A stretch of DNA of 64,000 nucleotides from the NCBI GenBank assembly GCA_026417415.1, contig JAOADG010000008.1, forward strand, positions 372,001 through 436,000, read 5' to 3'. The notes below the pieces were generated by a model. It saw only the letters and a list, made by a program, of their open reading frames with translations, had not been told where the DNA came from and ran no database searches. Shown here in pieces: positions 24,031 through 62,807 of the stretch; position 1 is the first letter of the stretch, and each line of letters begins with the position of its first letter. The position numbers and the translations under genes were made by a program. This stretch comes from a bacterium. Lineage in GTDB: Bacteria > Electryoneota > JAOADG01.

Positions 24031-24543
24031 TTATTGTTTTGGTTTACTATGATGTTCAATTTTAGGATACCATTCATCCAAGTTAAAGCCCTTAAATGTG
24101 GGGCTCTTTTCGTTATGGCAAACAACGCAATGTTCTTTGGGCTTTTCCACAAAACCATTTTCAATGGCTAATTTTTTATCTTTTGAGTGGGTGGTTTTGT
24201 AAGCAGAACCCGGTCCATGACAAGATTCGCAGTTGACCCCTTCGGTTTTAAATTCTGTTGACGAGATATGGCAGCTTAAGCACTCTTTGTCTTCTTGTGC
24301 AGAACCTTCACGACCAAGTTTTTTCATCACTGCCGCTGCTTCTTCAGTGCCCAAGGTAGCAAAAGCATTCGCATGTTTGGTTTTTTGCCAATCTTCATAA
24401 ATGTTCCCTTTTGCAGCACCCTTATGGCACATCACACATTTAGAATTGCCAATATAGGTAAAGCTTTTTTCGTTTTCTGCAAAAGCAATGATACTCATAG
24501 CCAATACGATGACTACAAGTAAAATAGAAAGAATTGTTTTCAT
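24031..24543 (-). CDS. Tetraheme c554-like cytochrome c
   Basis: Signal peptide; CVMCH, CLSCH, CESCH, CVVCH. Confidence 0.85.
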   Translation of the reverse strand: MKTILSILLVVIVLAMSIIAFAENEKSFTYIGNSKCVMCHKGAAKGNIYEDWQKTKHANAFATLGTEEAAAVMKKLGREGSAQEDKECLSCHISSTEFKTEGVNCESCHGPGSAYKTTHSKDKKLAIENGFVEKPKEHCVVCHNEKSPTFKGFNLDEWYPKIEHHSKPKQ

Positions 24544-24578
24544 AATTCGTCTCCTTTTAACTAAGAATTAGTGTTCCA

Positions 24579-25166
24579 TTAATTACTTTGAGTCCAGATA
24601 TGACCTGCTGGACCGTGACATCCTGTGCAGGTCAAAGTGGAATCGTTCCAACCAACACCGATTACTTCGGCAAAACCAGTGTCCAAATGACCCGTATCGT
24701 CCCACCGATTCGGTACTTGATGACAACCGGAGCAAGGTAATGGAAGGGATGGAGGAATGGAAGACAAATGAACTTGATGTGCGCCCACTCCACGTGCATT
24801 ACGAGATACGTTCCCGTTTAAATCTGTAGGTGGCGCCCAATTACGTGGTTCTAATGGATTTATACCAATCCCTTTCATACCGTGACAGAAATTGCAATCA
24901 GTAACAGTTATTCGGTTATTTTCAGAATGACACTTTCCACAACTCATACTTTGGTTGCCAAAACCATCAAAATTTGTTCCATGACACGCTGTACATTGTC
25001 CGATATCAAAACCATGACTTCTCAACCATTCATCATGAGTAACGTCTGCAGGTGATGGAAATGGATGTGGGTTTGATGAAAGTGGTACGTAAGATTCATT
25101 AATTTCTGCACCACAGCCAATTACTAAAAAAATAAAAAAAATAGAAATGATCAGATGCACTTGCAT
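24579..25166 (-). CDS. Pentaheme cytochrome c lipoprotein
   Basis: ATG at 25166 gives MQVHLIISIFFIFLVIGC lipobox; CTACH, CGKCH, CNFCH, CSGCH, CTGCH. Confidence 0.82.
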   Translation of the reverse strand: MQVHLIISIFFIFLVIGCGAEINESYVPLSSNPHPFPSPADVTHDEWLRSHGFDIGQCTACHGTNFDGFGNQSMSCGKCHSENNRITVTDCNFCHGMKGIGINPLEPRNWAPPTDLNGNVSRNARGVGAHQVHLSSIPPSLPLPCSGCHQVPNRWDDTGHLDTGFAEVIGVGWNDSTLTCTGCHGPAGHIWTQSN

Positions 25167-25176
25167 AGTTTTCTCC

Positions 25177-25863
25177 TTAATTATGGCACCTGACACAAGT
25201 TGGTTCCTGAGGGCTTTGGTCATGGCAAGCCAGACAACTTTCAAAGTACAATTTACCTTCTTCAGCATGTTTTCCACCAGCTCCAGTATTTGCCCACTGA
25301 TAACCCAATGGATGACGAATGGGAATACTCTTTCTATGACAATCAGTACAAAATTGCCGAGTTTCATGACAACTTAAACAGCGTCCACCCATAGCAGCAT
25401 CGGTTGAATGTTGAAAAATATAGTTTGGACTATGAGGTGAAAGATTTGATGTTGAATTTGAATGGCATTGATCACAACTCGCTTGTTCATGGCAAACGCG
25501 GCATTCCACTAAATTTGCACTGGCGTCCAACCCGTGAATCCTTGAATTCCATTCCGGTGATGTATGATTAAACGGTTTTCCAAAACCGCCGCCTTTAATA
25601 CCAGAAACGTGACAAGTATTGCATTCGTTGGTATTGTTTGTATTATGGCATTCTTTACATTGTTCGTGATTCGGATTTTTTCGGACACCTGCTTTTACTT
25701 CTTTTGCAGAACCATGACATTGAATACAGGTCATTTCTACAGTTTGAAGGTGTAGTGTGTGACTAAACTTTAATGCGGTAACGCTCTCATTTGCTCCAAA
25801 TACTAACCACGTGGTATTTAAAATAAATGTGAAAAGAAAAAGGAGTAAAATTTTGCGAATCAT
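25177..25863 (-). CDS. Nonaheme periplasmic cytochrome c
   Basis: Signal peptide and nine CxxCH motifs (CIQCH, CKECH, CNTCH, CRVCH, CDQCH, CLSCH, CTDCH, CLACH, CVRCH). Confidence 0.85.
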   Translation of the reverse strand: MIRKILLLFLFTFILNTTWLVFGANESVTALKFSHTLHLQTVEMTCIQCHGSAKEVKAGVRKNPNHEQCKECHNTNNTNECNTCHVSGIKGGGFGKPFNHTSPEWNSRIHGLDASANLVECRVCHEQASCDQCHSNSTSNLSPHSPNYIFQHSTDAAMGGRCLSCHETRQFCTDCHRKSIPIRHPLGYQWANTGAGGKHAEEGKLYFESCLACHDQSPQEPTCVRCHN

Positions 25864-27149
25864 CGTGTAATTCCTTGTGAGAAGGTATAAGTCAGTGTAC
25901 CAAGAACTCTACCATCACGTTTAAGTTTAGGATTAGAATAGTATTGGTATTCAAGTTCACCTGTCAAGAATTTGAACCGATTTGGAGTATAGCGAACACC
26001 GGAGATGAAATTGCGTGTGGTTTGCGTTTGAATGCCAACTTCTTCCCATTCTGATTGAATGCTGGATGCTCGCAGATACCAATGGATTTGTTTGAATGCT
26101 TCATAGTAAAGGGATATCCAAGGTCCATTGGACTTAGACAAATATCCGAAAGAATGTTGATAACCAATTTGACCATAAGGTGTAAGACACGCTACACCAA
26201 CTCGATGTCCTTCGTTACCGGAATAATAACTGGTCGCTTCGGTACGAAAGCCCCATTTTGCAGGTACAAAATAATAATCAAAGATGGTCTGCATTCTGGT
26301 CGAAAAGGGAAAAACTGCAATCCCAATGGGTGCGTCAATTTCAGTAGTTTTAGGAAGTTTGAAATTTCGAAACCAACTCGAACTTGAAATTTCTGGACGA
26401 TAAATTCCTATATCACTAAACCATATGATTTTTGACGATGCATACCGAATGCGTAAAGAACTGGTGCGAATATCTTGTGATAGAAGTCGGTATTGAGTAT
26501 TACTTAAAATTGTCCAATGAGCATTGATTCGTCCAAAAAGTTGTAACCCGAGATTGTTTCGGAATTCATTTCCTTCGCGATACTGATCAGCATAGGACAA
26601 TTTCAACATGAATCGTTGGAAAGGATGGAGTTCAAGTTTAGAATACCGAAACTCGCCACCATAGATTGGAGAATGACCTTTAGAAATCTCAAAACGATGA
26701 TTGTCAGGTGATACAATACCACCAAAAACAGTTATCCCCAAATATTTAGAAAGATCCGTTGTGTATTCTAAACCATCTATATTGCCTAATCCTACACCTC
26801 GGTATAGAAAAAAACGACCTATCTTGAATTCAGTATCAGAACCCCATTGACCATATTGCCAATAAGCCGAATACAAATGAAAATCACCTGATTCACTAAA
26901 TTGATCCGCATGATTTCCGCGATACTGAAAATGTGTGTTGAAAGAACTTTGCAAAGGTAAATCACTTAACTGACTCCTAATCCCACTAAACAACCAGAGG
27001 TGGTCTTCACTTCCACTATTTGTGGCGTTTACAAATTGATAAGAGTAAACGCTGGTATAAATACTACTTTGAATTCCAACAGCTGACCCCGTCGACGAAA
27101 AGCCAAGTAAGAAAAGGCAAAAAAGAGTAAAAATTAAAACAAATCTCAT
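25860..27149 (-). CDS. Predicted outer membrane beta-barrel (putative porin of a porin-cytochrome conduit)
   Basis: Signal peptide, no heme motif, no long hydrophobic helix after it. Alternating amphipathic strands with aromatic residues (FKIGRFFLYRGVGLGNIDGLEYTTDLSKYLGITVFGG). Overlaps both neighbours by 4 nt. Confidence 0.65.
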   Translation of the reverse strand: MRFVLIFTLFCLFLLGFSSTGSAVGIQSSIYTSVYSYQFVNATNSGSEDHLWLFSGIRSQLSDLPLQSSFNTHFQYRGNHADQFSESGDFHLYSAYWQYGQWGSDTEFKIGRFFLYRGVGLGNIDGLEYTTDLSKYLGITVFGGIVSPDNHRFEISKGHSPIYGGEFRYSKLELHPFQRFMLKLSYADQYREGNEFRNNLGLQLFGRINAHWTILSNTQYRLLSQDIRTSSLRIRYASSKIIWFSDIGIYRPEISSSSWFRNFKLPKTTEIDAPIGIAVFPFSTRMQTIFDYYFVPAKWGFRTEATSYYSGNEGHRVGVACLTPYGQIGYQHSFGYLSKSNGPWISLYYEAFKQIHWYLRASSIQSEWEEVGIQTQTTRNFISGVRYTPNRFKFLTGELEYQYYSNPKLKRDGRVLGTLTYTFSQGITR

Positions 27150-29818
27150 TTTAACTCCGAATCCGTACTGGAACTTTCATTAACTTTCAGATCCGTTTGA
27201 TCTATATGATCGGCATTATTTAGATGATTCGATGTATCAGAATCAGGGTCACCGGGATGAACAAAATTAGGTTGTCCTAAAGTTGCTTCGGCAGCTTTGC
27301 GATGATGGTGTTCCCATTCCTCTTTGCTCATTCTACCAGTTAAAAAAGTCAAAGATAAAGGATATTGTTTTGGATGGAAAATTACAAAAAAGAAATGCCA
27401 AATTAGGATTGCACCTACTGCTAAAATGGCTTCATAATAATGAATGACGCCCGAAACGCGTACTATCCATCCCGGCGCCCAAGAAGTGATAATTGTAGGG
27501 AACCACAAGATAAATCCGGTCAATCCCATAATGATGGTTCCCCAAACCAATGCCCAGTATTCTGCTTTTTGAGTATAGTCGTAGGTACCAAAATGAGGGG
27601 GGTCTTTACGTAAACGTAAATAATAAAGAACATTTTGAAATGCCAATCGGGTATCTTCTATTTTCGGGTAATAATTCTTTAATTTTTCACGACCGCGTTG
27701 TGTACCAAACAACCAAATGACATGCCAAACGGTGCCGATTAGTAACGTGATTGCTAAGACCCGATGCGTTGTTGCACGTCTAATTTCATTCATTCCAAAG
27801 AAATTCAGAATTTTTACCCACCAAGAATCTGCAAAGCGAAGTGCAAAGCCAGTGATGGCTAATCCAATGAATGTGAATAACAACAACAAGTGTTGCCAAA
27901 TCTCTTGTTTACTCATTCTAACAATGTAATCTTCTTTTTTATGTTTATGATAGTGTTCTCGTAAATAGTAAACGAAGATAATGACATTGTGAATAAGCAT
28001 ACCTCCTAATGTAAGTGCAATGAGGACAATATAAATTACGCGTACATAATCATGTTTTCCCCAAACTTGACCAAATGCTGCATGGGTATAGGATTGGGCA
28101 AATTCTGCATTGGAGTTGGGATGGCATTTCCCACAAGTTTGAATGACATGATTAGGATGTGTAGAGGAAGTAGGATCCAGATGGCTACGGATAGCATGGG
28201 TAGTATGACAATCATTACAGTTGGCAACGATTTGTGATCCTTTTAACGCCCATCCGTGGTAACTGTCTTGATAACTTTTAACTACACCATACCATATTCC
28301 AAAACGATCGGTTAAAGCACGATTCTCATGACATCTACCACAGTCCGATGCTATGTTTAGAGGGTAAGTTCGGGATGCAGGATTGGATTTTGGCAAAATG
28401 TAATGCGATTCGTGACAATCGTTGCAGGTAGGTGAATCAGTTATTCCACGACGTGCGGCTGCACCATGAATTGAAGTCAAATAATCTGCAGCTGCTTGTT
28501 CATGACATTTGCCACAAGCACGAGGTAAATTCTGTCGGTGGGTAATGCTTGCCGGATCACCAGCCGATTGGATTTCGTGGGTACCATGACAATCTGTACA
28601 CAATGCGCCCCTGCTAAGTGTTGTGTCCTGTTTCCATGCCTGCCACTTTTCTGCATGGATAGATTTCATATAATTGGAAAGAGTCATCGGTAAACGCACA
28701 AAATCTGACGTTAGAACCAAACTATCACCATGGCACTTACCACACATTTGTGGTTGATTAAATGGATGGGCCATACTTTTCCGATCGGTCACCCTACGAA
28801 CTCCATGTCCACCATCATGGCAATCCCCGCAATTGGCTGCCACTCCTAAACCTGTCGGATCGTCCCGAAAGTGCATTGAACGTTTATATTCTTCCAATTG
28901 TTGAGAATGGCAATCCCCACAATGAAAAGCTTGTTCGTTTGGTCTAAGATGAATAGAATGACAACTGGCACAAGTCATCTCTTGACTAATCAATTTTGCC
29001 ATATGGACAGATTCACTAAATTCATTCATGGACTTATGGTGACAAGCCAAGCAATTGGAAAATGCATCGTTGGATTTTTTTGGATTTGGAATTCCGTGCG
29101 GATCGTGACAACTGCTGCAAGAAACTTTAGCTACTAAACTATCAGTTGGTATGGGTTGATGTATACCGTGGATCCCATGAGGACCGTTTTTTAAGCGTGC
29201 CATCGCATCAATATGGCAATTTTGGCAGGTCTTTGTGATGGATACTGGGTCATTGAGTTTAATTTCGCCATGAGGTTTATGACAAGTTGCGCAAGCGTGT
29301 CCATCTTTTGAAGGGAATACTTTGAAATGTTTACTGGATTGAAATTGTTTACTTTCTTCACTATGACATTTGGTACAAGATAAACCTGCTACTCCGCTCG
29401 CATTTGAACCTATCCGATGCATATCACCATTGATGGTGTGGCAATCTTTGCATTGTGCTGCGATAAAAGGAGATGTTCCACCACCTGTGCCATGAACTGA
29501 TTTTCGCCAATTTTCTGTAATTCCTTCATGACAATCATCGCAGTTAACTGGAGTGTATTTCGTATAGTGAGGTACATCATCATAATTCCCTGCCGAATGG
29601 CAATCAATGCAATTTAGATTTCCATGTGCGCTTTTAGAATACTCTGAAGTTACAAACATCTTTCTATTATCACTACTTTTTAATGAAGCATCTGAGTGGC
29701 ACATCATACAGTACTCATTGGATTGCCATTCTGATTGTGCTGCAAAAGAAGTATCAAAAAATGAGAATGAGAAAATGAAAGATAAAAATAGAGAAAAAAG
29801 TGTTTTCGTTAGTTTCAT
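27146..29818 (-). CDS. 19-heme cytochrome c fused to a C-terminal FdnI/HydC-like cytochrome b membrane domain
   Basis: 19 CxxCH motifs counted by hand, then TM helices with His residues (HNVIIFVYYLREHYHKHKKEDYIVRMSKQEIWQHLLLLFTFIGLAITGFALRF...HRVLAITLLIGTVWHVIWLF). Confidence 0.88.
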   Translation of the reverse strand: MKLTKTLFSLFLSFIFSFSFFDTSFAAQSEWQSNEYCMMCHSDASLKSSDNRKMFVTSEYSKSAHGNLNCIDCHSAGNYDDVPHYTKYTPVNCDDCHEGITENWRKSVHGTGGGTSPFIAAQCKDCHTINGDMHRIGSNASGVAGLSCTKCHSEESKQFQSSKHFKVFPSKDGHACATCHKPHGEIKLNDPVSITKTCQNCHIDAMARLKNGPHGIHGIHQPIPTDSLVAKVSCSSCHDPHGIPNPKKSNDAFSNCLACHHKSMNEFSESVHMAKLISQEMTCASCHSIHLRPNEQAFHCGDCHSQQLEEYKRSMHFRDDPTGLGVAANCGDCHDGGHGVRRVTDRKSMAHPFNQPQMCGKCHGDSLVLTSDFVRLPMTLSNYMKSIHAEKWQAWKQDTTLSRGALCTDCHGTHEIQSAGDPASITHRQNLPRACGKCHEQAAADYLTSIHGAAARRGITDSPTCNDCHESHYILPKSNPASRTYPLNIASDCGRCHENRALTDRFGIWYGVVKSYQDSYHGWALKGSQIVANCNDCHTTHAIRSHLDPTSSTHPNHVIQTCGKCHPNSNAEFAQSYTHAAFGQVWGKHDYVRVIYIVLIALTLGGMLIHNVIIFVYYLREHYHKHKKEDYIVRMSKQEIWQHLLLLFTFIGLAITGFALRFADSWWVKILNFFGMNEIRRATTHRVLAITLLIGTVWHVIWLFGTQRGREKLKNYYPKIEDTRLAFQNVLYYLRLRKDPPHFGTYDYTQKAEYWALVWGTIIMGLTGFILWFPTIITSWAPGWIVRVSGVIHYYEAILAVGAILIWHFFFVIFHPKQYPLSLTFLTGRMSKEEWEHHHRKAAEATLGQPNFVHPGDPDSDTSNHLNNADHIDQTDLKVNESSSTDSELK

Positions 29819-29986
29819 AATTCTTTACTCTTGGTAGGTGAATCGTTGTGGGTATAAAAATATACTTTCCGATGCACTTTATATCAAGTTATTTCAAAAC
29901 ATTTGAATAATTCACATTAGACACTCTAAAAAAACAATCCGTAAGTTAAGTTGCAAATAAACAGTCAAAAAGTATAGAAAACAAAA

Positions 29987-32011
29987 TTATCGGATTAAAA
30001 TAGATTTGAGCAGTTTTTCTGTCAATTCAGGATTGTGTGCACCATTTGATCCATCATTCTTCACAGAAAGATAATTCTTACGTGTTTTCATACTAAGCGT
30101 TGAAAGGTTCATTTTTTCTACTGAATCTAACAATACACGAGTCATTTGTTGCCACTCTTTGCCCATTTTTATGTAACTTGCATCATGGCAATCCCCGCAT
30201 TGTTCTGTTGTAGGACGAATAATTTCTAATCCTGTTCCATGACAAGCAGTACATTCAACACCAGCTTCTGCCATCAGTGATGGTAAGGGTTTACCATCGT
30301 TTGCTGTGCCCAAGTACATCGCTTTTTGATATGTATGACAATGCTTACAACTTGTTTCGTCTTTGGCATTGGCATGATGACATTCTATACAATTATTACC
30401 TTTGGTTAACGTTACACCATGTTGTGTAGTGCTATGACAATCAGAACATTGGATCCCTTTTGAAAGGTGAATGGAATGGGGAAAGGTCTTTTGCCCCACC
30501 AACACTCCAATCGCATCAATCCCCGTGTGGCAATCATAACATTTAAGATTATGGGGTAGTGCTGGAGTACTTTTTTTCGTAAGTGCTTCTTTTTGACCTG
30601 TGAGCAATTCTAACGATTTTTCTAAAAGTGCATTTGCATATTTCGGATTGTGCCATCCACCTGCTTGCCGTACCAATTGATAATTGATGGTTGCTCTTTG
30701 GATTGCATCTTGTGAAACGGTGCGATTGTTTTTTGCAACTTGTAACGCCTCTTGAACATTCTGCAACTTGATTTGGAATGAAGTTTTCCATTGAGTAGTT
30801 AATTTTTGATAACTTGGATCATGACAAGGTAAACAATTGGCTTTTACAGGTTTATTCAATAAAAAGTGATCTTGATTGGTTGGATGGCTATGACAAGATT
30901 CGCAATTTAATCCTGCTTTCCACATAATATCTGGCTGTTCAGCAACCTCAACCCCGCCAGTTCCACGAAACAGCATTTCAGTAGCACTATGCAAATCCGA
31001 GTGACAACGGTTACAGTCGGTAATGGTAGTTTGTGCTTTGGATAAAGAAATATGTTGAATAGTGGTATGACAATTCTGACAATCTACTTTTCGTTCTGTT
31101 ACATGTTTTTGATGCATAAATTCAATTTCGTGAATTCTATCAATGTGATCTCTGGAGGCGTGGCAAATGTTGCAACGTTCATGAGGAACCTCACCGTTGC
31201 CAACTTTCATAGGGCCATGGCACATTTGACATTCAACTTGTTTCTTTATCCATTCAGTATGATCAAACTTTGGTTCCGGTTTCCCAACTTCTTTTACGGG
31301 AGCGGAATGACATTGGGTACAATGAACAGTACTCCCTTTTTGAAAGACATTACGATTGTTCAAATGCGAAGGAGAATCATTAGAAGAGGCAAAAGCCACA
31401 CTACTCGGAACATCTTTGAAATGACATAAAAAACACGTAGATTCTGTTACAGTGATATGAGCCCCTTGAACAATTTGGCCATGGCAAGAAGTGCAACGTA
31501 ATTGTTTGTTACGTACTTCGTGGGATAAGTGACTTTCATGATTGAATTTGATTCCTTGTTTCCATTCTAATGGTCCTACCAATAATCGTGATTCATGACA
31601 GTCACTGGTTGTACAATTTTGATCTTCAATTTCTGCCCAAGGTTTAGAACGTTTATAAACACCAGTTGCATAGTTAACCAACATGGAAGCTGCTACAAAC
31701 TTCCCTTCTATCTTACCTTTTAATCCAGGGGGGATATGACAGGTAATGCAATCCACATGTTTATGCGAAGAAGTTTCCCAACTTGCAAAATAAGGTTCCA
31801 TAATGTGGCAGGAACGGCAAAAGGCTGGTTGAGAAGTTGCTTTCACAAATACAACTGCAGTAATAACAGTGAGAATCACTCCTGCTAAGATAAGAAGAAT
31901 GATTTGACGAGCGCCTAAAGAAAAAAACCGTTGAAAACCAATTTTAGTAAGGGTAAAAGGAAGTAAAAAAACAACTTTAAGCGCTGATAAAAATTCTTTG
32001 AATAATTTCAT
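29987..32011 (-). CDS. NapC/NirT-type 18-heme membrane-anchored cytochrome c
   Basis: N-terminal TM anchor followed by FCRSCHIMEPYFASWETSSHKHVDCITCHIPPG (NapC/NirT-like). 17 CxxCH plus one CX4CH (CTTSDCH). Confidence 0.88.
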   Translation of the reverse strand: MKLFKEFLSALKVVFLLPFTLTKIGFQRFFSLGARQIILLILAGVILTVITAVVFVKATSQPAFCRSCHIMEPYFASWETSSHKHVDCITCHIPPGLKGKIEGKFVAASMLVNYATGVYKRSKPWAEIEDQNCTTSDCHESRLLVGPLEWKQGIKFNHESHLSHEVRNKQLRCTSCHGQIVQGAHITVTESTCFLCHFKDVPSSVAFASSNDSPSHLNNRNVFQKGSTVHCTQCHSAPVKEVGKPEPKFDHTEWIKKQVECQMCHGPMKVGNGEVPHERCNICHASRDHIDRIHEIEFMHQKHVTERKVDCQNCHTTIQHISLSKAQTTITDCNRCHSDLHSATEMLFRGTGGVEVAEQPDIMWKAGLNCESCHSHPTNQDHFLLNKPVKANCLPCHDPSYQKLTTQWKTSFQIKLQNVQEALQVAKNNRTVSQDAIQRATINYQLVRQAGGWHNPKYANALLEKSLELLTGQKEALTKKSTPALPHNLKCYDCHTGIDAIGVLVGQKTFPHSIHLSKGIQCSDCHSTTQHGVTLTKGNNCIECHHANAKDETSCKHCHTYQKAMYLGTANDGKPLPSLMAEAGVECTACHGTGLEIIRPTTEQCGDCHDASYIKMGKEWQQMTRVLLDSVEKMNLSTLSMKTRKNYLSVKNDGSNGAHNPELTEKLLKSILIR

Positions 32012-32132
32012 ACCATCAAGAAGCAAGTTCAAAAATTGGAAAAGGAAAATTTATAGAAAAGTGACGCACACAAAATAATCAAAGAATAAATTAAGAACCA
32101 ATCATTGTGAAAAAATTATTTTTGATACCATT

Positions 32133-32549
32133 CTATTTTTTATGACATGCAGTACAATTTTTATTGGAATGACAAGTGAAGCAACTTTCGTGAAGTACAA
32201 CTTTACTCTCTTGCACATCCCAACGAGTAACTTCCTTCTGATGACAATGACTGCAACTTTCAACGTGGTGGCATTCAATACACTGAATTTTCAAATCATG
32301 CTCGTGTAACTTGTGATTAAATACAATTTGCGTACCACCCAGGTATTTGGTTTGAAATACTTTTTCATCTGGAATAGGCCGTTTACGATTTGTCCAATCA
32401 TACAAGATTGAAGGTTCAGCTATCTTTGCACTATCTGATGGCTTTACTTCAACGGGTGCTTTTGTTTTGGGGTCTTTCGAATAAGCGTTCAACAGGAATA
32501 GAACCAGTGTATTCGTAAAAAGCAGAAATACAATCAAATATTTTTTCAT
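32133..32549 (-). CDS. Small tetraheme cytochrome c (c3/c7-like)
   Basis: Signal peptide; CIECH, CSHCH, CFTCH, CTACH. Confidence 0.85.
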   Translation of the reverse strand: MKKYLIVFLLFTNTLVLFLLNAYSKDPKTKAPVEVKPSDSAKIAEPSILYDWTNRKRPIPDEKVFQTKYLGGTQIVFNHKLHEHDLKIQCIECHHVESCSHCHQKEVTRWDVQESKVVLHESCFTCHSNKNCTACHKK

Positions 32550-32557
32550 ATTGACTC

Positions 32558-33766
32558 CTAAGTTGTTTCAACCATTTTCAAAGGTACAGTTTGATGCTCG
32601 TGGTTAGTGGTTTCTTCGTGTTCATGTTCAGGGAAAATTGGAAAGAATCGTGCTATAAAATAAAATGCCATGGTACCTATTGTGACTAAAAATAGTGAAA
32701 TCGCAATTTCGCTGTAAGAGGGATAATAGTTGGCATTTGATTGCCTTAGCATTCCAATCCAGCAAACATTGAAACGATTGTAAACAACGCCTACAACTAC
32801 TAGAAAGGCGGAAAAGAAAATCCAACGTGGGTTTTGTCTAAGTTTTTTTAGTCCTAAAAGAATAACAGGGACAATAAAGAAAGTCATTTCTAAAAGACCA
32901 TGAATACTTTCAAATGAACCTGTGAAAAATTCTTTGAATGCATCACGGATATAGAAATCTTGAAGTTTCACTCCGATGTAGATAATTAATGCAATTAACA
33001 AAAATCCAGCTAATTCAACTAGTACGGGTTTCTCCAAACTACGATGAAATGCTTTTGCACTAAATGTTGATTCAACAATAACCATTGCAGGTCCAACCAC
33101 AATCGCAGAGAGATAAAACATCAAAGGTAACATCGGTGTGTACCAAATAGGATGAAGTTTTTCAGGCACAATCAAGAATACTGAACCTAATGAAGATTGG
33201 TGTAATGTGGAAAGTAATATCCCTGCAATCACCAATGGGATAGTGGCGCGTTGCATAAATTTCAACAAACGGTGGAACTTGAATTTTTCTAATACTACAG
33301 GTAAAAATTCTAAGAATAGTACTGTTAAATACAACATCACACACCATGCAACTTCAAACATCACTGAATGGTGATTCCACATGATTACAGGATGCCATAC
33401 ATTGTAGTACTTTCCTAAATCGTACAGTAAGCCAACAGCAACTAAAGCATACCCTAAAAAAGCCGTAAGAACAGTAGCACGGACAACCGAATGAAATTTA
33501 TGATACCCAATTAAGTACACTAAAAAACACAACGTAAAACCACCAGCTGCTAATGCAACACCACTTACTACGTCAAAAGCAATCCAGAATCCCCAAGGAA
33601 ATTCATCCGATAAATTGGTGGTCGCACCAAGCCCTTTAGTAAAACGTACTATTGTTAAATAAATCCCTTGGATAATGATCAATAGATAAATGATCCAACG
33701 GATTTTACGAAAAGTACTCATTCCACGAATTTCAGTGCGTAGAAAAGAAACAACTGTTTGAAACAT
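32558..33766 (-). CDS. NrfD/PsrC/HybB-family integral membrane quinone-interacting subunit
   Basis: About 10 TM helices; GATTNLSDEFPWGFWIAFDVVSGVALAAGGFTLCFLVYLIG is HybB/NrfD-like. Start trimmed to 33766, adjacent to the Fe-S gene stop. Confidence 0.88.
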   Translation of the reverse strand: MFQTVVSFLRTEIRGMSTFRKIRWIIYLLIIIQGIYLTIVRFTKGLGATTNLSDEFPWGFWIAFDVVSGVALAAGGFTLCFLVYLIGYHKFHSVVRATVLTAFLGYALVAVGLLYDLGKYYNVWHPVIMWNHHSVMFEVAWCVMLYLTVLFLEFLPVVLEKFKFHRLLKFMQRATIPLVIAGILLSTLHQSSLGSVFLIVPEKLHPIWYTPMLPLMFYLSAIVVGPAMVIVESTFSAKAFHRSLEKPVLVELAGFLLIALIIYIGVKLQDFYIRDAFKEFFTGSFESIHGLLEMTFFIVPVILLGLKKLRQNPRWIFFSAFLVVVGVVYNRFNVCWIGMLRQSNANYYPSYSEIAISLFLVTIGTMAFYFIARFFPIFPEHEHEETTNHEHQTVPLKMVETT

Positions 33767-33767
33767 T

Positions 33768-34538
33768 CTAAGAATCCTTATCTTTTTTTCGTTTTTCAGA
33801 TCGAGAGGTTTCTTTATGTTCTTGCTCAAGAGACATTCTACGGTTTACTAACCAAGATATTCCACCTAACAGAATAGCGCCTGTAATCACCACATTCGGA
33901 ATTCTTCTGAGAACAGTACCAGTAAGTTCTGGAAGTTCAACTTCCGGTAAATCAGTTCTAAAACCAAGTTCTTCAAATGGAATACTACTTAACATCAAAA
34001 CTGAAGTTCCACCAACTTCTGTTTCTCCATAAACTTTATGAACATAACGATTTGGAAAAGTTAAAATTCGTTTGTGCGCAATTTCTAATAAGTACTCTCG
34101 ATCACCGAATCTACATGCTCCTGTTGGACAAACCCATGCACATGCTGTTGGAAGACCTTCTTTTACACGCTGGTGACACATGATACACTTACGAATGACA
34201 GGAATGGGTTTATCCCATTCATATTTTGGAATTTGAAAGGGGCAAGCCATCATACAGTAACGGCATCCCATACATTTACTGGGATAGTAAATGACAGGGC
34301 CGTTCTCCGTTTTTTCTAACGCAGCTACAGGACAAACGGAAACACAAGCCGGATGTAAACAATGCATACACATTTTGCGAAAATATTGGTGGTTTCGCTT
34401 GAGTACTACAGTAAAGTTTTTATAGTTTAATTTATCGTCAGGGGCATCGGAAGGAAGGTTATTTTCTTTAGCACAATATTCTTCGCATGCCTGACAACCA
34501 ACACAGCGTGTGAAATCCAAAAGCAAAGCTTTACTCAT
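33768..34538 (-). CDS. 4Fe-4S ferredoxin-type subunit (HybA/DmsB-like) with C-terminal TM anchor
   Basis: CVGCQACEEYC, CMHCLHPACVSVCP, CMGCRYCMMACP, CIMCHQRV...CAWVCPTGA. C-terminal VITGAILLGGISWLV helix. Confidence 0.9.
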   Translation of the reverse strand: MSKALLLDFTRCVGCQACEEYCAKENNLPSDAPDDKLNYKNFTVVLKRNHQYFRKMCMHCLHPACVSVCPVAALEKTENGPVIYYPSKCMGCRYCMMACPFQIPKYEWDKPIPVIRKCIMCHQRVKEGLPTACAWVCPTGACRFGDREYLLEIAHKRILTFPNRYVHKVYGETEVGGTSVLMLSSIPFEELGFRTDLPEVELPELTGTVLRRIPNVVITGAILLGGISWLVNRRMSLEQEHKETSRSEKRKKDKDS

Positions 34539-34679: not shown

Positions 34680-35066
34680 TTATTGTGATGTCATTTTCCC
34701 TTCCCGTTCGAGAATCCACCCTTTGACAGTCCTATGGATTTCTTTTAAAATATCTTTAGCAAGTTGAAGACCGCCATCAGAGTGTATCGGCACCTTTCCC
34801 TCTTTCATTTTATACAAATCGGAAATTTGCTTTTCAATACCTCGTGGAAAGCCACCGTGAAGCACAAAACGTTCATAAAAAATGGGTAAGGAATAATCAC
34901 GAGGAACGGATGTGATATCATTTAAAATGAAAACGGCTTCGATCCCTTTTTCTACAGCGACTGAAGCAAGTAAACAAACTGCCTCAGGGGGAAGTGTTTC
35001 TATTTGTGCGGCTTGTAAAAACAATCTACTTAAACGGTCAGCTTCCTTCGCTTGTAAAAGGTTCAT
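34680..35066 (-). CDS. Conserved-looking protein of unknown function
   Basis: Open frame with ATG at 35066 after GAGGAT. Starts just downstream of the phosphatase reading-frame end. Confidence 0.5.
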   Translation of the reverse strand: MNLLQAKEADRLSRLFLQAAQIETLPPEAVCLLASVAVEKGIEAVFILNDITSVPRDYSLPIFYERFVLHGGFPRGIEKQISDLYKMKEGKVPIHSDGGLQLAKDILKEIHRTVKGWILEREGKMTSQ

Positions 35067-35082
35067 AGGTATCCTCAATTTA

Positions 35083-35259
35083 TCAAAGTCGTTTAATGAA
35101 AATTACGGTCTGATCATCCGATAATACAGTAGTTCCAACATGTTGACGCAAATGGTCAAATAAAACTAACAAACCATCCTCAACTTTCGTCTTAGCAAGT
35201 AATGGGAGCAAGGATCTTAATTTTTCCATACCAAAAGGTTTTCCATCCACATTGAAAGC
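35083..35259 (-). pseudogene. Detached C-terminal tail of the SpoIIE-type phosphatase
   Basis: Same frame after TAA 35260-35262 encodes AFNVDGKPFGMEKLRSLLPLLAKTKVEDGLLVLFDHLRQHVGTTVLSDDQTVIFIKRL, ending at TGA 35083-35085. This matches the expected SpoIIE/PP2C C-terminus (EAxN...G..FG...L...DDxTxxxxK). Confidence 0.8.
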
Positions 35260-37572
35260 TTAGGGTATTCCATCAGAAAAAATAATTAAAAAGTCCCCGC
35301 TTTGTAAAGTGATTTCACCTGTATGATAAGGGATGTTCACGAATGAACCCACAACCGTCCCACCAATAGAGAGTTCTTCATAAGTAGAAGAATTTCGTAA
35401 TACTATAGGGTTGTCATGACCAGCATTTACGTACTTCACTAATCCAGTTTTCAGATTGAGTACTGCATAAAATAGTGTTACAAAGATTTCAGGTGATGTA
35501 GTTTTAACCAATTCATTATTCAATTTTTCAATGACTTTAGATGGATCTAAACTACTTGATGCTAACAAACGTAAGGCTGCTTGGACATTAGACATCAATA
35601 AAGCAGCAGAAATTCCTTTTCCAGAAACATCACCCAATGTGATGACAAGATTATCATTAGCAAGTTCAATAAAATCATAAAAATCGCCTCCAACCTGATA
35701 TGCTGTTTCATTTCTTGATGCTATTTCCCAACCTTGAAACTTTGGTGGGGAGGAAGGGAATAAATTCTTTTGAATGTTTCGAGCAATTTCTAAATCATGT
35801 TCAATCCGTTCTTTGATGCGAACTTCAGAAAGCAATTTAGAGATGTCACTAGCCATTAAATTGAATGAATAAGATAATTCACCTAATTCATCTTTCGACT
35901 CAACTGGAATACGATGTTCTAAGTTTCCTTTTCTTAATTCAAAGGTTCCATGCAACAAACGTAAAGTGGTTTGGACAAGAAGGTTAGTGATTTGGACTCC
36001 GAGGTGTACTACTACGAAAACAAATAAAAACAAAAGGATACTAAGAAAGCCAAGAATGTACCAAAATGATGAGCCAACAGGGTTGGTTTCGTTGATGAAA
36101 AAAGATTTCAATTGTGAAAAAGTGACATAAAAGATTGCTAAGGTGCCGACGCTAAAATTGGATGATGAAGAAAAATTGCTATTGGCAAGCCATGTAACTC
36201 CAAACAATAAAAAGAATGGTTTTTTTGAGGTTGTATCTCGAAAAGAGGATTGGTAAACTTGAACCAATGAAGTATTAAATGTACTATCTGAATTTGAAAC
36301 CTGTACCTCCGTAGAAGGTGTCTGAGAATTGGTATTAGAAATGTTGTAAAGGTTCATAGAACATTGTAAATGATTTTCTATTTCTAAAAAATCATTCTCA
36401 GATAATATTTTTCTTATACCAACAATTTGTTTTTCTTTTTCTATAAATGCAAAGACATAGATAGCATTGGATCCCGTTACAATTCCATAAAAAGGATAAT
36501 CTATTTTTTTACGATTGTAAACTAGATATCTAAAATCAGTATTAGAATGAACAGGGATAAATTCTTTGTGCTCACTTTTCTTAGAGGTTTGTAACTGAAA
36601 TAAGCCAATTTCTACGTTAACGGTGTCCTTTACAAAAAGTTTGAGTGGTGTGGTTGATATTGTATGGATGGGATTGTGATTGAAATTAGAGAGTACTTCC
36701 TGAACGAGTAGATCACTTTTTTTCAATAGAAATGCTTCTAACAATCGTCCATTCAGTTTCCCAATCAAAAGGATTAAAAACATCCAAAACAATAAGAAAG
36801 AGAAAAGGAGAGGCACAATACTTGTAAAAAGAAAGGATAGAATTAATTTAAAACGAACAGTATAATGTTTTTGAACAAGATTAATAATGGGTGTAATCAA
36901 ACCTCGAACAAACAATAAAAGTGTGGAAAGTAAAATGAGTAAACTGGTAAACGATAGAAAATGCTGTAAAAAAGAAGTGTTGTAAGGATTTTTTTGTATT
37001 GTATCCAAAATGGAAAGTGTACAGAATAAAAAAATAAATAGAAATAAGGTAAGAGAAAGAATAAAGAGAAAAAGTCGTTGTTTATTTTCCAACCTATCAA
37101 ATCGGCATAAAATGCCAACCAATAAAAATGCACACACAACTTCAAAAACCGTATTTTCTTGGGTTATGGAAACGATAAAGATTAAACTTGTGATAAACAC
37201 CCAAGAGAACTCATTTTGTAATACTATGTATTTAGGGATAAAGAAGTAGCGAAGTGTAAATGCGTAAACAACAAGAATAAACAAAGAAATAAAAAATGAA
37301 TTGGGGAAGCTATTGATTAAAATGGTAAGAACCAGAAAGAGAAAACTCAGAAATAAAACAAATCGGCTATTGAATTGAGAAAATGTGGGTAATCCCCATA
37401 CAAGACATAAAATTCCAAACAGTAAGAGAACTTTACTAGAAAATGCATCTGGAAGAAAAATTTGAATCAAGAAGTGCAATGAAAGAATGATTATACCAAG
37501 AAACGTTAGTACTTTATTGTCTAAGGAAAAAATTGAGGGGTTTCGCAGATATTTTATTAAAAAAGACATCAT
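35260..37572 (-). CDS. Multi-TM, HAMP-containing SpoIIE/PP2C-family serine phosphatase, C-terminally truncated by in-frame TAA
   Basis: N-terminal TM region, HAMP (LRKGNLEHRIPVESKDELGELSYSFNLMA), RsbU-like IQKNLFPSSPPKFQGWEIA, VGGDFYDFIEL, LGDVSGKGISAALLMSN, ends FLIIFSDGIP-stop. Confidence 0.88.
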   Translation of the reverse strand: MMSFLIKYLRNPSIFSLDNKVLTFLGIIILSLHFLIQIFLPDAFSSKVLLLFGILCLVWGLPTFSQFNSRFVLFLSFLFLVLTILINSFPNSFFISLFILVVYAFTLRYFFIPKYIVLQNEFSWVFITSLIFIVSITQENTVFEVVCAFLLVGILCRFDRLENKQRLFLFILSLTLFLFIFLFCTLSILDTIQKNPYNTSFLQHFLSFTSLLILLSTLLLFVRGLITPIINLVQKHYTVRFKLILSFLFTSIVPLLFSFLLFWMFLILLIGKLNGRLLEAFLLKKSDLLVQEVLSNFNHNPIHTISTTPLKLFVKDTVNVEIGLFQLQTSKKSEHKEFIPVHSNTDFRYLVYNRKKIDYPFYGIVTGSNAIYVFAFIEKEKQIVGIRKILSENDFLEIENHLQCSMNLYNISNTNSQTPSTEVQVSNSDSTFNTSLVQVYQSSFRDTTSKKPFFLLFGVTWLANSNFSSSSNFSVGTLAIFYVTFSQLKSFFINETNPVGSSFWYILGFLSILLFLFVFVVVHLGVQITNLLVQTTLRLLHGTFELRKGNLEHRIPVESKDELGELSYSFNLMASDISKLLSEVRIKERIEHDLEIARNIQKNLFPSSPPKFQGWEIASRNETAYQVGGDFYDFIELANDNLVITLGDVSGKGISAALLMSNVQAALRLLASSSLDPSKVIEKLNNELVKTTSPEIFVTLFYAVLNLKTGLVKYVNAGHDNPIVLRNSSTYEELSIGGTVVGSFVNIPYHTGEITLQSGDFLIIFSDGIP

Positions 37573-58445: not shown

Positions 58446-59456
58446 TTAAGGATTATCTCCATAAGTTACATTACGAAAAGTTCGTGGTGGGTTAAAGTAA
58501 TTTGCATTTTGTTGCCATCCTGCATAACCAAACTTCATGTTTACGGCACGATAACCCAACGCATTTAAGTATGTAGTTGCATATGCACCTGAATGTCCGG
58601 TGTAGCAGTAAATCACAATTAGACGATTCGAGGGTAGTTTGCGTAATGTAGCAACATCATTCAAATCGCGAACAAATACGTTTCTGGCAGTGGGGATATG
58701 ACCAGCAGCGTAATCGGTAGCTTGACGAACATCAAGAATGAAGATGTTTGCACCAGCATTTAAAGAATCGCGAACAGCTGCAGCACTAATCACTGCTGTT
58801 GCTGTTGAAAGATAATTGTTTAGAGCAGTACGAACATCACCGGAACTTGGTTCAGGATAAGCATTGTAATCTTCTAAAGCATAAGCCACAGTATCTACTG
58901 TACCATTAATCGCTGACGTTGAAGTATAATGGCCTGTAAAGTTCAAACCATTAGCGTTGTTATCATCTGTCCACCCGCTCATTCCATATTTAAAGTTCAC
59001 AACGTTGTATCCTAATGCGCCTAATGCAGCAGTTGCTAATCCACCTGTATGGCCCGTAAAACAATACACTACTAATCGTTTCGTTTTGTTTCTAGTCCAA
59101 GTGTTTAACAAACTTTCATAGTTTGGATTAGCAACAGATTTCCACCATAATAAATGCGCACCCGGAATGTGGCCACCATACGGGGGATTTGCTGTCGGGT
59201 TTCCGCGATATACTGCGCTATCCCTAACATCCAAAACTACATAGTTGGTATCATTTAGAACTGGTTCCAATTGAGTAGCAGTCATTACAAAGGATGCAGT
59301 ATCAATGAAGCTGTTGAATGCATTGAAGATGTTCATAAAGTTTTGTGATGGAGTTACTGGTTGTGGAGCTGTAGGGCTTGTATCGTCGTCAGAGCAACCA
59401 ACTACCAAAATCACAAATAAACTGAAAAGAACAAAAGTGATGAATTTACTTTTCAT
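58446..59456 (-). CDS. Double rhodanese-domain lipoprotein
   Basis: Lipobox ILVVGC. Two domains, each with a Cys loop: LVVYCFTGHTGG and VIYCYTGHSGA, with LDVRDSAVYRG and LDVRQATDYAAGHIP. Confidence 0.88.
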   Translation of the reverse strand: MKSKFITFVLFSLFVILVVGCSDDDTSPTAPQPVTPSQNFMNIFNAFNSFIDTASFVMTATQLEPVLNDTNYVVLDVRDSAVYRGNPTANPPYGGHIPGAHLLWWKSVANPNYESLLNTWTRNKTKRLVVYCFTGHTGGLATAALGALGYNVVNFKYGMSGWTDDNNANGLNFTGHYTSTSAINGTVDTVAYALEDYNAYPEPSSGDVRTALNNYLSTATAVISAAAVRDSLNAGANIFILDVRQATDYAAGHIPTARNVFVRDLNDVATLRKLPSNRLIVIYCYTGHSGAYATTYLNALGYRAVNMKFGYAGWQQNANYFNPPRTFRNVTYGDNP

Positions 59457-59469
59457 TCGGTTTCCTCCT

Positions 59470-60888
59470 TTAATTTTCATGTTTCCCCGGTATTAGTGGC
59501 GGGGCGTTGGTGATTACATTGCGATTTGCATCGCGTTCTATTTCGTGCATTAATCCATGTTGGATTAAACTGTCAAGAAAACTTTCTGTTAAAAAGAACT
59601 CATTTCTACCATGGCAATTGTTACAAACGGGAATAGTCGTACGTCTTCCTAAACTATCTATGACAACACGAGAATTTTGTGGTGTATGTTTTTGAATATT
59701 ATGAGGTGTTGCCATCATCCAAGTTGCATCATTAATGTAATTCGGAAGTGATAAATTCCAGGGTTGCATATAAGTATTTGGAGATATTGGGATGTGACGG
59801 ACAACCACGTAATCATATTCATTCCGATCAAGGCGTGGGTTACGTCCAATTTTAAAATCAAAACTTGTCGTATCTACGACAAAACCGGTATCCATTGCAT
59901 GGCAACTGTAACAACTTTTAATTTTAACACTGTGGCAAACATTGCATTGAACACGAGAATGTTGAAGACCATGTTGTGGATTAGTTGAATTGGATAGGTT
60001 ATGGCATTGTGTACAGCTGGCGCGTGGTGTCACATTGTAACGATGTGGATAGGTCTGATTACTTTTTGCAGAATGCATTTCAAATTCATTATGGCAACTC
60101 ATACACGTCATACCCCTACGATGATGAACATCGGCACTTCCACCAGGAACTTCGCCACGAAAATCTGCACCAACTCTTGCACCATGGCAAGCAATGCAAT
60201 TCAAATCTTGATTTGGAGTTCGATTAAAGCGATGACCATTTACAAAACCACTCTTGACTGAACGTGGCATACTGATGTGACATTCACCACATGTGGTATG
60301 GCAAGCAATACAACGACGTTCAAACATCGGCCAATATTGTGAATGAGTGGTATCACCGCCGCGCTTGACAAATTGTCCGTGATATCCTGCTTGAGTGTAA
60401 TGAATTGATTGACGATGGGCATTTACAATGCCTTCATGACAATTTCTACAAACTCCACCGCCATTTTCTGCAGAAGGATCACGAATCAATCCAACGTGCG
60501 CACTATCTTTTGGCAAAAATCCATCACGTCCACTATGACAAGTGATACACCGAATACTAGCATGCGGATCATTTCTAAGATAATCCATAGAAACTAAAAC
60601 TTTTTCATGTGCTGGAACCTCCGGCACAGAACCACCTCAACCATCGCCTTGTATTTGATTGGAATACTTACGTAGCGGCCCTGAAGAAACTGAATGTGGT
60701 TGGGTCCCTTGTGAAGGACCTAATGTTGCCAGCAATGCGTTGGCATTTGTGTGGCAACTGATACAATCTCCTTTGGTTAAATCAGAGGTTGGACTGGTTG
60801 GAATGGGTTTAAATGAATCTTCTTTAAGACAAGAATTGTATAGAAAAAGAGAAACAAGTAAAAGAAGAACCATTAGTTTTCTAAACAT
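59470..60888 (-). CDS. 11-heme cytochrome c lipoprotein interrupted by in-frame TGA (candidate selenoprotein or nonsense/sequence error)
   Basis: ORFs 60637..60888 (lipobox LFLYNSC, CISCH) and 59470..60627 (ten CxxCH, no signal peptide) are in the same frame, separated by TGA 60637-60639 and three sense codons (GGS) before GTG 60627: ...NQIQGDG-(TGA)-GGSVPEVPAHEKV... Confidence 0.8.
60608..60628 (-). promoter_or_regulatory. Hairpin downstream of in-frame TGA, SECIS-like
   Basis: UGA-GGUGGUUC-[UGUGC C GGA (GGU) UCC A GCACA]: 5 bp, one mismatch, 3 bp, GGU apical loop starting 17 nt after UGA. Confidence 0.35.
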
Positions 60889-61307
60889 AGTTGAACCTTT
60901 ACATATTGGAGAATTTCTTTTGTCCATTGACGGATTTTTTCATTTTGGGATAAAAGTAAATCTTGGGAATTGAGTTTTTCAATGGAAAGACAACCAAATA
61001 ATGATAATAGGAACTGTCTAAATTTTCCGATTTCATTAGGTTCATTACGGCTAATAAAATGGATTAGTTCGTTGCAAGGGCAGTCGTCCGATGGTACAAA
61101 TTGTAATAAATCTTCAGGTTTCGTGTGTAACATTTCAAGTGCTTCTGCAACTGCTCTTTCAATGGAACCGGCAACAATTTCACATACTAACCGTCTTCGT
61201 AAAATTTTTGAGTTCACATCTCCACTTTCAATTAGTTGATTGTACAATGAAAGTGCTTCATCGTAATGACCGCTTAGAAATCGTTGATTGGCTAACATCA
61301 ATATCAT
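60873..61307 (-). CDS. Small TPR-like helical protein
   Basis: LANQRFLSGHYDEALSLYNQLIESGD. Start placed at ATG 61307. Overlaps the cytochrome start. Confidence 0.5.
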   Translation of the reverse strand: MILMLANQRFLSGHYDEALSLYNQLIESGDVNSKILRRRLVCEIVAGSIERAVAEALEMLHTKPEDLLQFVPSDDCPCNELIHFISRNEPNEIGKFRQFLLSLFGCLSIEKLNSQDLLLSQNEKIRQWTKEILQYVKVQLCLEN

Positions 61308-61415
61308 ATGTGAAAAGAATAGCAAAAGATATGCCAAAAGAAAATGTTCAATTGGAACGAGAAAAATCAAAGGAAATGAAACATAATGAAACAATCTAAA
61401 TGTTTCTGAAACGTT

Positions 61416-62807
61416 TTATATGGGACACTCTGGATTTGTTGAAGGAGAAGATAAATCCAAGTTTTCAACAGATTTTTCTTTTCCCGTTTGTTGCAGTGTT
61501 TTCAGTCGTCGCCAAAACGTTACGCGGGAAATACCTAACAATTTTGCAGCTTCATTAACTCGATGGTTTGCACGTGCCAATGCAATAAGTAAGGGATTAA
61601 CACCTGTTTGAATTGATTCTAAGTAAATTGAAGAATGAATAGGATCCTTACCATTCTGTTTTTCAAAAAGATATTTAGGTAAATGTTTAAGTGTTAAAAC
61701 GGGACCTTCACCGATTGCAATAGCATACGATATAGCATTTTCAAGTTCTCTTACATTTCCTTTCCATTCAAGGGATTGGAGAAATTTCATTGCGTCGTCA
61801 GATACCTTTACAAAATCCGTTTCTTTTTGAGTTTTTGCCCTTTTCAAAATAGCATCCACTAAATAGGGTATATCTTCAACGCGTTCTCTTAAAGGTGGAA
61901 TTTTAAGTTGAATGACTGATAACCGATAAAATAAATCCTCTCGAAAACGCCCTTCATGAACTTCTTCAAGCAAATTACGGTGGCTTGCTGCAATTACACG
62001 GACTTTTATTGGAATGCTAACTTCACCACCGACAGGTGTAATTTTTTGTTCTTCTAATACCCGTAACAATTTGACTTGCAATAGGGGCGATGCTTCAGCA
62101 ATTTCATCTAAGAATAGAGTTCCACCACTTGCGCGTTCAAAGTAACCGGTATGATGAGCTTTTGCATCCGTAAATGCGCCTTTACGATGCCCAAATAATT
62201 CGCTTTCTAATAATGTATCGGGAATAGCACCACAAGAAAGTGCTAAAAATGGTCCGTCAGAGACAGGACTATATTGATGAATAGCACGTGCTAATCGTTC
62301 TTTTCCGCTCCCCGATTCACCCTGAATAACCACAGTAGCACGACTTCTTTGAAGGGAACGTACGGTTTGAAAGAGTTCTTTCATCACTGGTGTGTGACCA
62401 ATCATTCCACAAAATTGATAATGTGAATTCTCTTCTGGCTCTATGGTTTCAATTGGCCTAAAAGTAACAATTCCACCAATGACTTCTCCTGTTTCTGACC
62501 GTAAAATTGAGGTATTGATCATTAATTGAATAGGAGTCCCGTCCATCTTTCGTAGTTCTACTCGATGATCATACTGATTCTTCCCGGATTGTAATGAAAT
62601 TGCAAGAGGACAATGATTGGCACAAGCACTTGTTTGAAACAATTGTTGGCAAATTCTACCAAGTACATCATTTTCGTTGACTTTTAAAAGTTGTTTAGCA
62701 ACTTTATTGATGTATTGAATTCGCCAATCGTTATTAACTACGAAAGCACCAAATGGAATTGAATCTAAAATAGATTCATATTCTTGAATGGATAGAGTTT
62801 GTTTCAT
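61416..62807 (-). CDS. Sigma-54-dependent transcriptional regulator (PAS-AAA+-Fis HTH)
   Basis: PAS with CQQLFQTSACANHCP, Walker A GESGSGKERLARAIHQ, GAFTDA, GGTLFLDEIAE, C-terminal NEAAKLLGISRVTFWRRLKTL. Confidence 0.94.
   Translation of the reverse strand: MKQTLSIQEYESILDSIPFGAFVVNNDWRIQYINKVAKQLLKVNENDVLGRICQQLFQTSACANHCPLAISLQSGKNQYDHRVELRKMDGTPIQLMINTSILRSETGEVIGGIVTFRPIETIEPEENSHYQFCGMIGHTPVMKELFQTVRSLQRSRATVVIQGESGSGKERLARAIHQYSPVSDGPFLALSCGAIPDTLLESELFGHRKGAFTDAKAHHTGYFERASGGTLFLDEIAEASPLLQVKLLRVLEEQKITPVGGEVSIPIKVRVIAASHRNLLEEVHEGRFREDLFYRLSVIQLKIPPLRERVEDIPYLVDAILKRAKTQKETDFVKVSDDAMKFLQSLEWKGNVRELENAISYAIAIGEGPVLTLKHLPKYLFEKQNGKDPIHSSIYLESIQTGVNPLLIALARANHRVNEAAKLLGISRVTFWRRLKTLQQTGKEKSVENLDLSSPSTNPECPI

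What the first reader, a model, noticed from the sequence alone, without database searches (positions are those of the whole stretch)
24031..34538. Nine-gene electron-conduit cluster with 59 c-type heme motifs
All nine genes are on the minus strand. In transcription order: 4Fe-4S subunit, NrfD-like quinone subunit, tetraheme, 18-heme NapC-type, 19-heme/cyt b fusion, beta-barrel, 9-heme, 5-heme lipoprotein, tetraheme. This order runs from inner membrane to periplasm to outer membrane. Heme motifs by hand count: 4+18+19+9+5+4=59. No terminal oxidase, nitrite reductase, molybdopterin or hydrogenase catalytic subunit is present. The family-level parts resemble extracellular electron transfer systems (Geobacter Cbc and porin-cytochrome complexes), but the combination and the oversized cytochromes look distinct. 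The extracellular role is inferred.
Basis: partly seen in the sequence, partly recalled or inferred. Interest (0 to 1): 0.85.

Follow-up and report, generated by a model that had tools for sequence, protein, structure and literature searches.

The report
Selenium-linked extracellular electron conduit cluster
An uncultured bacterium carries a set of cytochrome and channel genes that most likely wires its respiration to substances outside the cell, and a conserved partner of this wiring, 24 kb away in the same window, is an apparently undescribed selenium-containing cytochrome paired with a sulfur-handling enzyme.

Summary
Nine minus-strand genes at 24031-34538 carry 58 CXXCH motifs plus one CX4CH (59). 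The barrel prediction passes: 22 strands, pLDDT 83. The electron-conduit reading is supported by architecture and conservation but not by experiment. The cluster is a mosaic of known kinds: an HmcBC/HybAB-like FeS-NrfD-tetraheme quinone module, a NapC/NrfH-anchored 18-heme cytochrome, a CbcL/MtoC/MtrH-type 19-heme/cytochrome b fusion, and a Pcc-like barrel-cytochrome-lipoprotein unit. All 42 loci examined with a homologue of the 9-heme gene (about 36 distinct) have a non-heme, barrel-sized ORF immediately upstream. Melioribacteraceae carry the same kind of set in one run, so it is not unique.

In relatives these lie beside or inside the conduit cluster. The TGA sits at one invariant motif (G-U-GG) in 12 homologues; 8 Ignavibacteria homologues have TGC (Cys) there. 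The host has SelB and tRNA-Sec. This is almost certainly a selenocysteine multiheme cytochrome, not matched by the ExtKL model. The system thus resembles Geobacter extHIJKL, whose porin is needed for selenite/tellurite reduction. Substrate and direction remain open.

The parts
33768..34538 (-). A: 4Fe-4S subunit, HmcB/HybA-like, C-terminal TM; lacks the Tat signal present in Melioribacteraceae homologues
   Evidence: HmcB 245 bits, HybA 204 bits, both below cut-off; N-terminus alignment
32558..33766 (-). B: NrfD/HmcC/HybB-like integral membrane quinone subunit (start corrected from 33829)
   Evidence: NrfD 72.6 bits; HmcC 336 bits, below cut-off 550
32133..32549 (-). C: small tetraheme cytochrome c, third member of the A-B-C trio
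   Evidence: 4 CXXCH; A-B-C contiguous in 7 further genomes of the phylum
29987..32011 (-). D: NapC/NrfH-type membrane-anchored cytochrome, 17 CXXCH + 1 CX4CH
   Evidence: NrfH 47 bits over residues 46-113; PDB NrfH 2j7a E 1e-9
27146..29818 (-). E: 19-heme DmsE/MtrA-like N-part fused to FdnI/Ni_hydr_CYTB-type cytochrome b (CbcL/MtoC/MtrH architecture)
   Evidence: MtrCAB entry 6r2q chain A E 2e-13; FdnI 1kqf_C E 2e-9; alignment
25860..27149 (-). F: outer-membrane beta-barrel, 22 predicted strands
   Evidence: AF2 pLDDT 83; Foldseek barrels; no Pfam/NCBIfam/PDB sequence family
25177..25863 (-). G: 9-heme exported cytochrome, overlapping F by 4 bp; candidate barrel-plug cytochrome
   Evidence: 42 of 42 loci have an adjacent non-heme barrel-sized ORF upstream
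24579..25166 (-). H: 5-heme lipoprotein cytochrome (start corrected from 25367; lipobox VIGC)
24031..24543 (-). I: 4-heme cytochrome c554-like, exported
   Evidence: (Cytochrome_C554 48 bits)
59470..60888 (-). Z: 11-heme lipoprotein with in-frame TGA (60639-60637, residue 84), predicted selenocysteine; GDG-U-GG motif
58446..59480 (-). Y: lipoprotein with two rhodanese domains, always next to Z
61416..62807 (-). Probable regulator: PAS-sigma54 activator-Fis protein upstream of Z-Y; homologues (36-40%) lie just upstream of Z in Ignavibacteria
60873..61394 (-). ORF between regulator and Z (real start probably 61307 or 61298), homologue downstream of Y in Melioribacteraceae

Best explanation
This is an extracellular electron transfer apparatus of the porin-cytochrome type in a facultative anaerobe. 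Menaquinol would be oxidised by the A-B-C module and/or by the cytochrome b part of E. Electrons would run through the large periplasmic heme arrays of D and E, with C and I as small shuttles, into G seated in the barrel F, and across the outer membrane to the lipoprotein cytochrome H. Two further lipoproteins, the selenocysteine cytochrome Z and the double rhodanese Y, would add a surface or outer-periplasmic site that handles a sulfur or selenium species. Shown here: gene content, heme motifs, barrel prediction, conserved linkage, and conservation of the TGA/Cys position with Sec machinery in the host. Inferred: protein locations, the order of electron flow, its direction, and the substrate.
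For: Heme density and exported/lipoprotein features. 22-strand barrel. Barrel-sized ORF next to G in 42 of 42 loci. E matches MtrA (1.8e-13) and FdnI (1.6e-9) and is conserved over its full length at 34-67% in many phyla. The cluster A-B-C-E-I-F-G-H-regulator-Z-Y is contiguous in Melioribacteraceae, the family of Melioribacter roseus, whose type strain is reported to hold a Geobacter-like Pcc (PMC7399161). Z-Y sits inside or beside the conduit in G004, G018, G009, G021 and Melioribacteraceae. The only Mo-domain protein found in the genome is a roughly 1069-aa alternative-complex-III-like one, so no molybdenum-dependent reductase is evident to use these cytochromes.
Against: No experiment. No sequence link of F to OmbB, MtrB or ExtI could be shown. 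The host also has COX1 and NrfA, so the periplasmic cytochromes could serve other reductases. In the nearest relative the inner-membrane A-B-C-D module and the E-I genes lie on different contigs, so one dedicated nine-gene pathway is not proven.
Confidence: 0.72

Rival explanations
1. The system's main job is reduction of sulfur or selenium/tellurium species (polysulfide, thiosulfate, selenite, tellurite) through the barrel, with Z-Y as the catalytic end, rather than metal or electrode respiration.
For: Co-conserved rhodanese lipoprotein and Sec cytochrome (20 of 20 Z loci have Y next door). Geobacter ext has the same trio of parts (rhodanese ExtH, porin ExtI, selenocytochrome ExtKL), and the extI mutant is impaired in selenite/tellurite but not Fe(III) citrate reduction (PMC5877670).
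Against: Many genomes carry F-G-H and E without Z-Y nearby, and only 10 of 39 phylum genomes have a strong Z match, so Z-Y is an add-on. A G. sulfurreducens strain with only extHIJKL still reduces Fe and Mn oxides (52% and up to 75% of wild type; PMC6148476).
Confidence: 0.25
2. Electrons run inwards: the conduit takes electrons from Fe(II), sulfide minerals or a partner cell and feeds the quinone pool and the terminal oxidase.
For: CbcL/MtoC/MtrH homologues occur in both Fe(III) reducers and Fe(II) oxidisers and sequence does not tell the direction (PMC6295460). The host has COX1.
Against: Melioribacter, whose family carries a similar cluster, is known as an Fe(III) reducer, not an oxidiser (literature; not tested here). 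HybB/HmcC-type modules work in either direction.
Confidence: 0.15
3. A periplasmic electron hub for soluble acceptors (for example NrfA nitrite reduction), with F a general porin that merely sits nearby.
For: NrfA is encoded in the genome (418 bits); D has a NapC/NrfH N-terminus.
Against: NrfA lies about 135 kb away on the contig. F overlaps G by 4 bp and a barrel-sized ORF is next to G in every locus. The lipoprotein cytochrome H is consistently next to G.
Confidence: 0.1

Closest known systems
Porin-cytochrome (Pcc) clusters ombB-omaB-omcB of Geobacter, and Pcc clusters in Ignavibacterium album / Melioribacter roseus
   Same: Barrel, adjacent exported multiheme cytochrome, adjacent lipoprotein multiheme cytochrome; published Pcc clusters range from 2 to 9 genes in six phyla (PMC4245776).
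   Different: H here has only 5 hemes against 12 in OmcB; homology of F to OmbB could not be tested; a selenocytochrome-rhodanese pair is co-conserved.
Geobacter extHIJKL(MNOPQS)
   Same: Rhodanese lipoprotein, porin, selenocysteine multiheme cytochrome and further cytochromes in one conserved neighbourhood (PMC5877670, PMC6148476).
   Different: Z has 10-12 hemes with Sec after the first heme, whereas ExtKL is a pentaheme; Z does not match the NCBIfam ExtKL model; regulator is a sigma-54 activator, not LysR; quinone module is FeS/NrfD plus cyt b fusion, not Rieske/cyt b.
CbcL/MtoC/MtrH inner-membrane quinol oxidase family
   Same: Multiheme N-part fused to FdnI-type cytochrome b; 19 hemes within the published 3-23 range (PMC6295460).
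   Different: Only the C-terminal cyt b and DmsE-like N-part were matched; no direct alignment to CbcL was possible.
Cbc4 (cbcSTU), SirCD, Hmc and Hyb membrane modules
   Same: FeS subunit + NrfD subunit + small c-type cytochrome (PMC11434368; HmcB/HmcC best NCBIfam matches).
   Different: Scores below HmcB/HmcC/HybA/HybB cut-offs; A has no Tat signal in this genome; no hydrogenase partner in the cluster.

Membership tests
Porin-cytochrome (Pcc) conduit | Outer-membrane barrel gene adjacent to an exported multiheme cytochrome | tested here: met
   22-strand AF2 barrel; 4-bp overlap with G; barrel-sized ORF adjacent in 42 of 42 loci
Porin-cytochrome (Pcc) conduit | Adjacent outer-membrane lipoprotein multiheme cytochrome | tested here: met
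   H: lipobox VIGC, 5 CXXCH, directly downstream of G; surface exposure not testable
Porin-cytochrome (Pcc) conduit | Sequence homology of the porin to OmbB | not testable with these tools
   No Geobacter porin sequence or model at hand; no Pfam/NCBIfam/PDB hit
MtrCAB | MtrB-family barrel with MtrA-type decaheme | tested here: not met
   Profile of F hits no PDB chain, including those of MtrCAB entry 6r2q, at E<=1; G matches 6r2q_A only over about 80 residues, E 2e-6
CbcL/MtoC/MtrH | N-terminal multiheme c part fused to C-terminal di-heme cytochrome b domain | tested here: met
   Ni_hydr_CYTB 60 bits, decahem_SO 89 bits; FdnI 1kqf_C; invariant His in the membrane part
HmcBC / HybAB | Score above the equivalog cut-offs of HmcB/HmcC or HybA/HybB | tested here: not met
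   245<420, 336<550, 204<263, 315<450 bits
ExtKL selenocytochrome (NF040886) | Match to the NCBIfam ExtKL model | tested here: not met
   Z scanned with TGA read through: no ExtKL match at E<=0.1
Selenoprotein (Z) | In-frame TGA conserved, Cys in homologues at the same position | tested here: met
   12 TGA and 8 TGC/Cys at the same G-x-GG motif
Selenoprotein (Z) | Sec decoding machinery in the host | tested here: met
   SelB 386 bits (cut-off 242); tRNA-Sec 66.9 bits (gathering 47)
Selenoprotein (Z) | SECIS hairpin just downstream of TGA | tested here: inconclusive
   Hairpins predicted but z-scores only -1.1, 0.05, -1.6, -1.7 in four sequences

The most novel reading that the evidence does not exclude
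Probability: 0.25. Interest if true: 0.78.

Novelty: new variant of a known kind. Interest (0 to 1): 0.57.

Why it matters
Extracellular electron transfer is well studied in Geobacter and Shewanella. Here a complete, conserved gene set is laid out for uncultured FCB-group bacteria and Melioribacteraceae. Its co-conserved selenocytochrome-rhodanese pair links electron conduits to selenium and sulfur chemistry in a second lineage besides Geobacter ext. Annotation pipelines will tend to call Z a broken gene because of the TGA, so the module is easily missed. Because Cys versions occur in Melioribacteraceae, a family with cultured members, the role of the selenol position becomes testable.

Tried and rejected
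A genome-contig scan with the single E protein found no relatives; the alignment scan found 585 or more, of which the best 80 were kept. Rfam on the window: none. AF2 of Z: pLDDT 37.6, not used. SECIS by folding energy: inconclusive. PDB sequence search with F: none. NrfD subunit B against PDB: none. Considered and rejected: Z as a pseudogene or sequencing error (the TGA is conserved in 12 homologues and replaced by Cys in 8); the nine genes as one unique operon (modules separate in relatives; gaps of 100-170 bp around D); the 19-heme fusion as a new family (CbcL type); an MtrCAB assignment. A sigma-54-like site upstream of Z-Y in the window (61336) and a perfect one 44 nt upstream of Z in L106 are suggestive only: the other seven loci scanned had none.
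Full report
OBSERVATION. Nine ORFs lie head to tail on the minus strand at 34538-24031. Counting motifs by script gives 4, 17 (+1 CX4CH), 19, 9, 5 and 4 CXXCH in the six cytochromes, 58 plus one, so the hand count of 59 is right if the CX4CH is included. The plus strand of the whole window has two CXXCH, so this is not chance. Starts are better placed at 33766 (B), 32011 (D) and 25166 (H). F and E overlap by 4 bp, G and F by 4 bp, and the H-I and B-C gaps are short; gaps of 100-170 bp surround D.

WHAT THE PARTS ARE. A and B best match HmcB/HmcC and HybA/HybB (245, 336, 204, 315 bits, all below the curated cut-offs), so they are an FeS-NrfD quinone module of that general type. With the tetraheme C they form a trio that recurs contiguously in seven further genomes of the phylum and, in the same-family genome, is followed by D. 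Published Cbc4 (cbcSTU) and SirCD modules have a comparable layout, Cbc4 also with a c-type cytochrome (PMC11434368). A lacks the Tat signal seen in Melioribacteraceae homologues, which I cannot explain. D has a NapC/NrfH N-terminus. E joins a DmsE/MtrA-like 19-heme part to an FdnI-type cytochrome b, the architecture of CbcL/MtoC/MtrH, for which 3-23 hemes in 15 phyla are published (PMC6295460). F is a predicted 22-strand barrel (pLDDT 83.1, pTM 0.72) with only generic outer-membrane barrels as fold matches. G, H and I are exported small multiheme cytochromes; H has a lipobox.

CONSERVATION. E orthologues (34-67%) occur in much of the phylum and in MAGs labelled Melioribacter, Ignavibacteria, Zixiibacteriota, Acidobacteria, Gemmatimonadota and others. 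Close phylum relatives are deposited under names such as Calditrichaeota, Zixiibacteriota or unnamed bacterium, so the host belongs to the FCB surroundings; I did not fix its phylum name. In every one of 42 loci with G (about 36 distinct, because some contigs were fetched twice) a non-heme barrel-sized ORF sits directly upstream. This is the porin-cytochrome layout; Pcc clusters are already reported in Ignavibacterium album and Melioribacter roseus (PMC4245776, PMC7399161). In Melioribacteraceae the order is A-B-C - two-component genes - large cytochromes - E - I - F - G - H - sigma54 activator - Z - Y.

THE MISSED PARTNERS. At 58446-60888, 24 kb upstream on the same strand, lie Z (11-heme lipoprotein) and Y (double rhodanese lipoprotein). 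Z is interrupted by TGA at 60639-60637. In G004 and G018 the order is F-G-H-I-Z-Y-E, in G009 H-Z-Y-E and in G021 Z-Y-F-G-H, so Z-Y belongs to this system. A profile search found 10 of 39 phylum genomes with a strong Z match, every one with TGA at the same (E/D)G-U-GG motif. Two more distant genomes also have TGA, and eight Ignavibacteria have Cys there. Y follows Z in all 20. The host has SelB (386 bits) and tRNA-Sec (67 bits). SECIS folding is inconclusive. Z is not matched by the ExtKL model or any other NCBIfam selenoprotein model; ExtKL, an octaheme cytochrome and an MtrB/PioB family are the related entries I found in the 2026 selenoproteome review (PMC13188914). A sigma-54 activator lies upstream of Z-Y in the window and in Ignavibacteria.

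HOW IT MOST LIKELY WORKS. Menaquinol oxidation by A-B-C and/or the b-part of E, conduction through D and E arrays with C and I as shuttles, entry into G within barrel F, delivery to H outside, and a chalcogen-handling end formed by Z and Y. Gene content, linkage, barrel and Sec position are shown; location, flow and substrate are inferred. The genome's only detected Mo-domain protein is an alternative-complex-III-like one. COX1 and NrfA are present, so the host is probably facultative with a soluble-acceptor option too.

AGAINST THE KNOWN. The nearest functional analogue that also carries selenium is Geobacter extHIJKL (rhodanese lipoprotein, porin, selenocytochrome). Its porin mutant is impaired in selenite/tellurite but not Fe(III) citrate reduction (PMC5877670), yet an extHIJKL-only strain reduces Fe and Mn oxides (PMC6148476). 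The present system works like that and like Pcc, but membership in ExtKL, MtrCAB or the Hmc/Hyb equivalogs was tested and not met. I rate it a new variant of a known kind: the conduit is an ordinary though large Pcc-type cluster, and the selenocytochrome-rhodanese pair is the fresh part.

Noticed in passing
window 59470-60888 (minus), TGA at 60639-60637: In-frame TGA in an 11-heme lipoprotein, conserved as TGA in 12 homologues and Cys in 8; predicted selenocysteine. Now treated as part of the system.
   Followed up: yes
window 35060-37572 (minus): The RsbU-type phosphatase ORF 35260-37572 ends at an in-frame TAA, after which the same frame continues with what reads like the rest of the catalytic domain to about 35082; a broken gene or an assembly error (read).
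   Followed up: no
window 33768-34538 (minus): The FeS subunit A has no Tat signal although Melioribacteraceae homologues do; upstream frames hold no missing signal.
   Followed up: partly
window 61336-61321 (minus): Sigma-54-like site (TGGCATATCTTTTGCT) between the sigma-54 activator gene and the ORF-Z-Y run.
   Followed up: partly
L094 5840-7804: Two response regulators fused to a GCV_H-like domain inside the Melioribacteraceae electron-transfer cluster.
   Followed up: no
window 45703-48189 (minus) and 48466-54999 (plus): A T9SS-type secreted protein with C-terminal sorting domain next to a 2177-aa ORF.
   Followed up: no
window 37710-43295 (plus): 1861-aa multi-PAS/GAF hybrid histidine kinase divergently placed from the RsbU-type gene near the cluster.
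   Followed up: no
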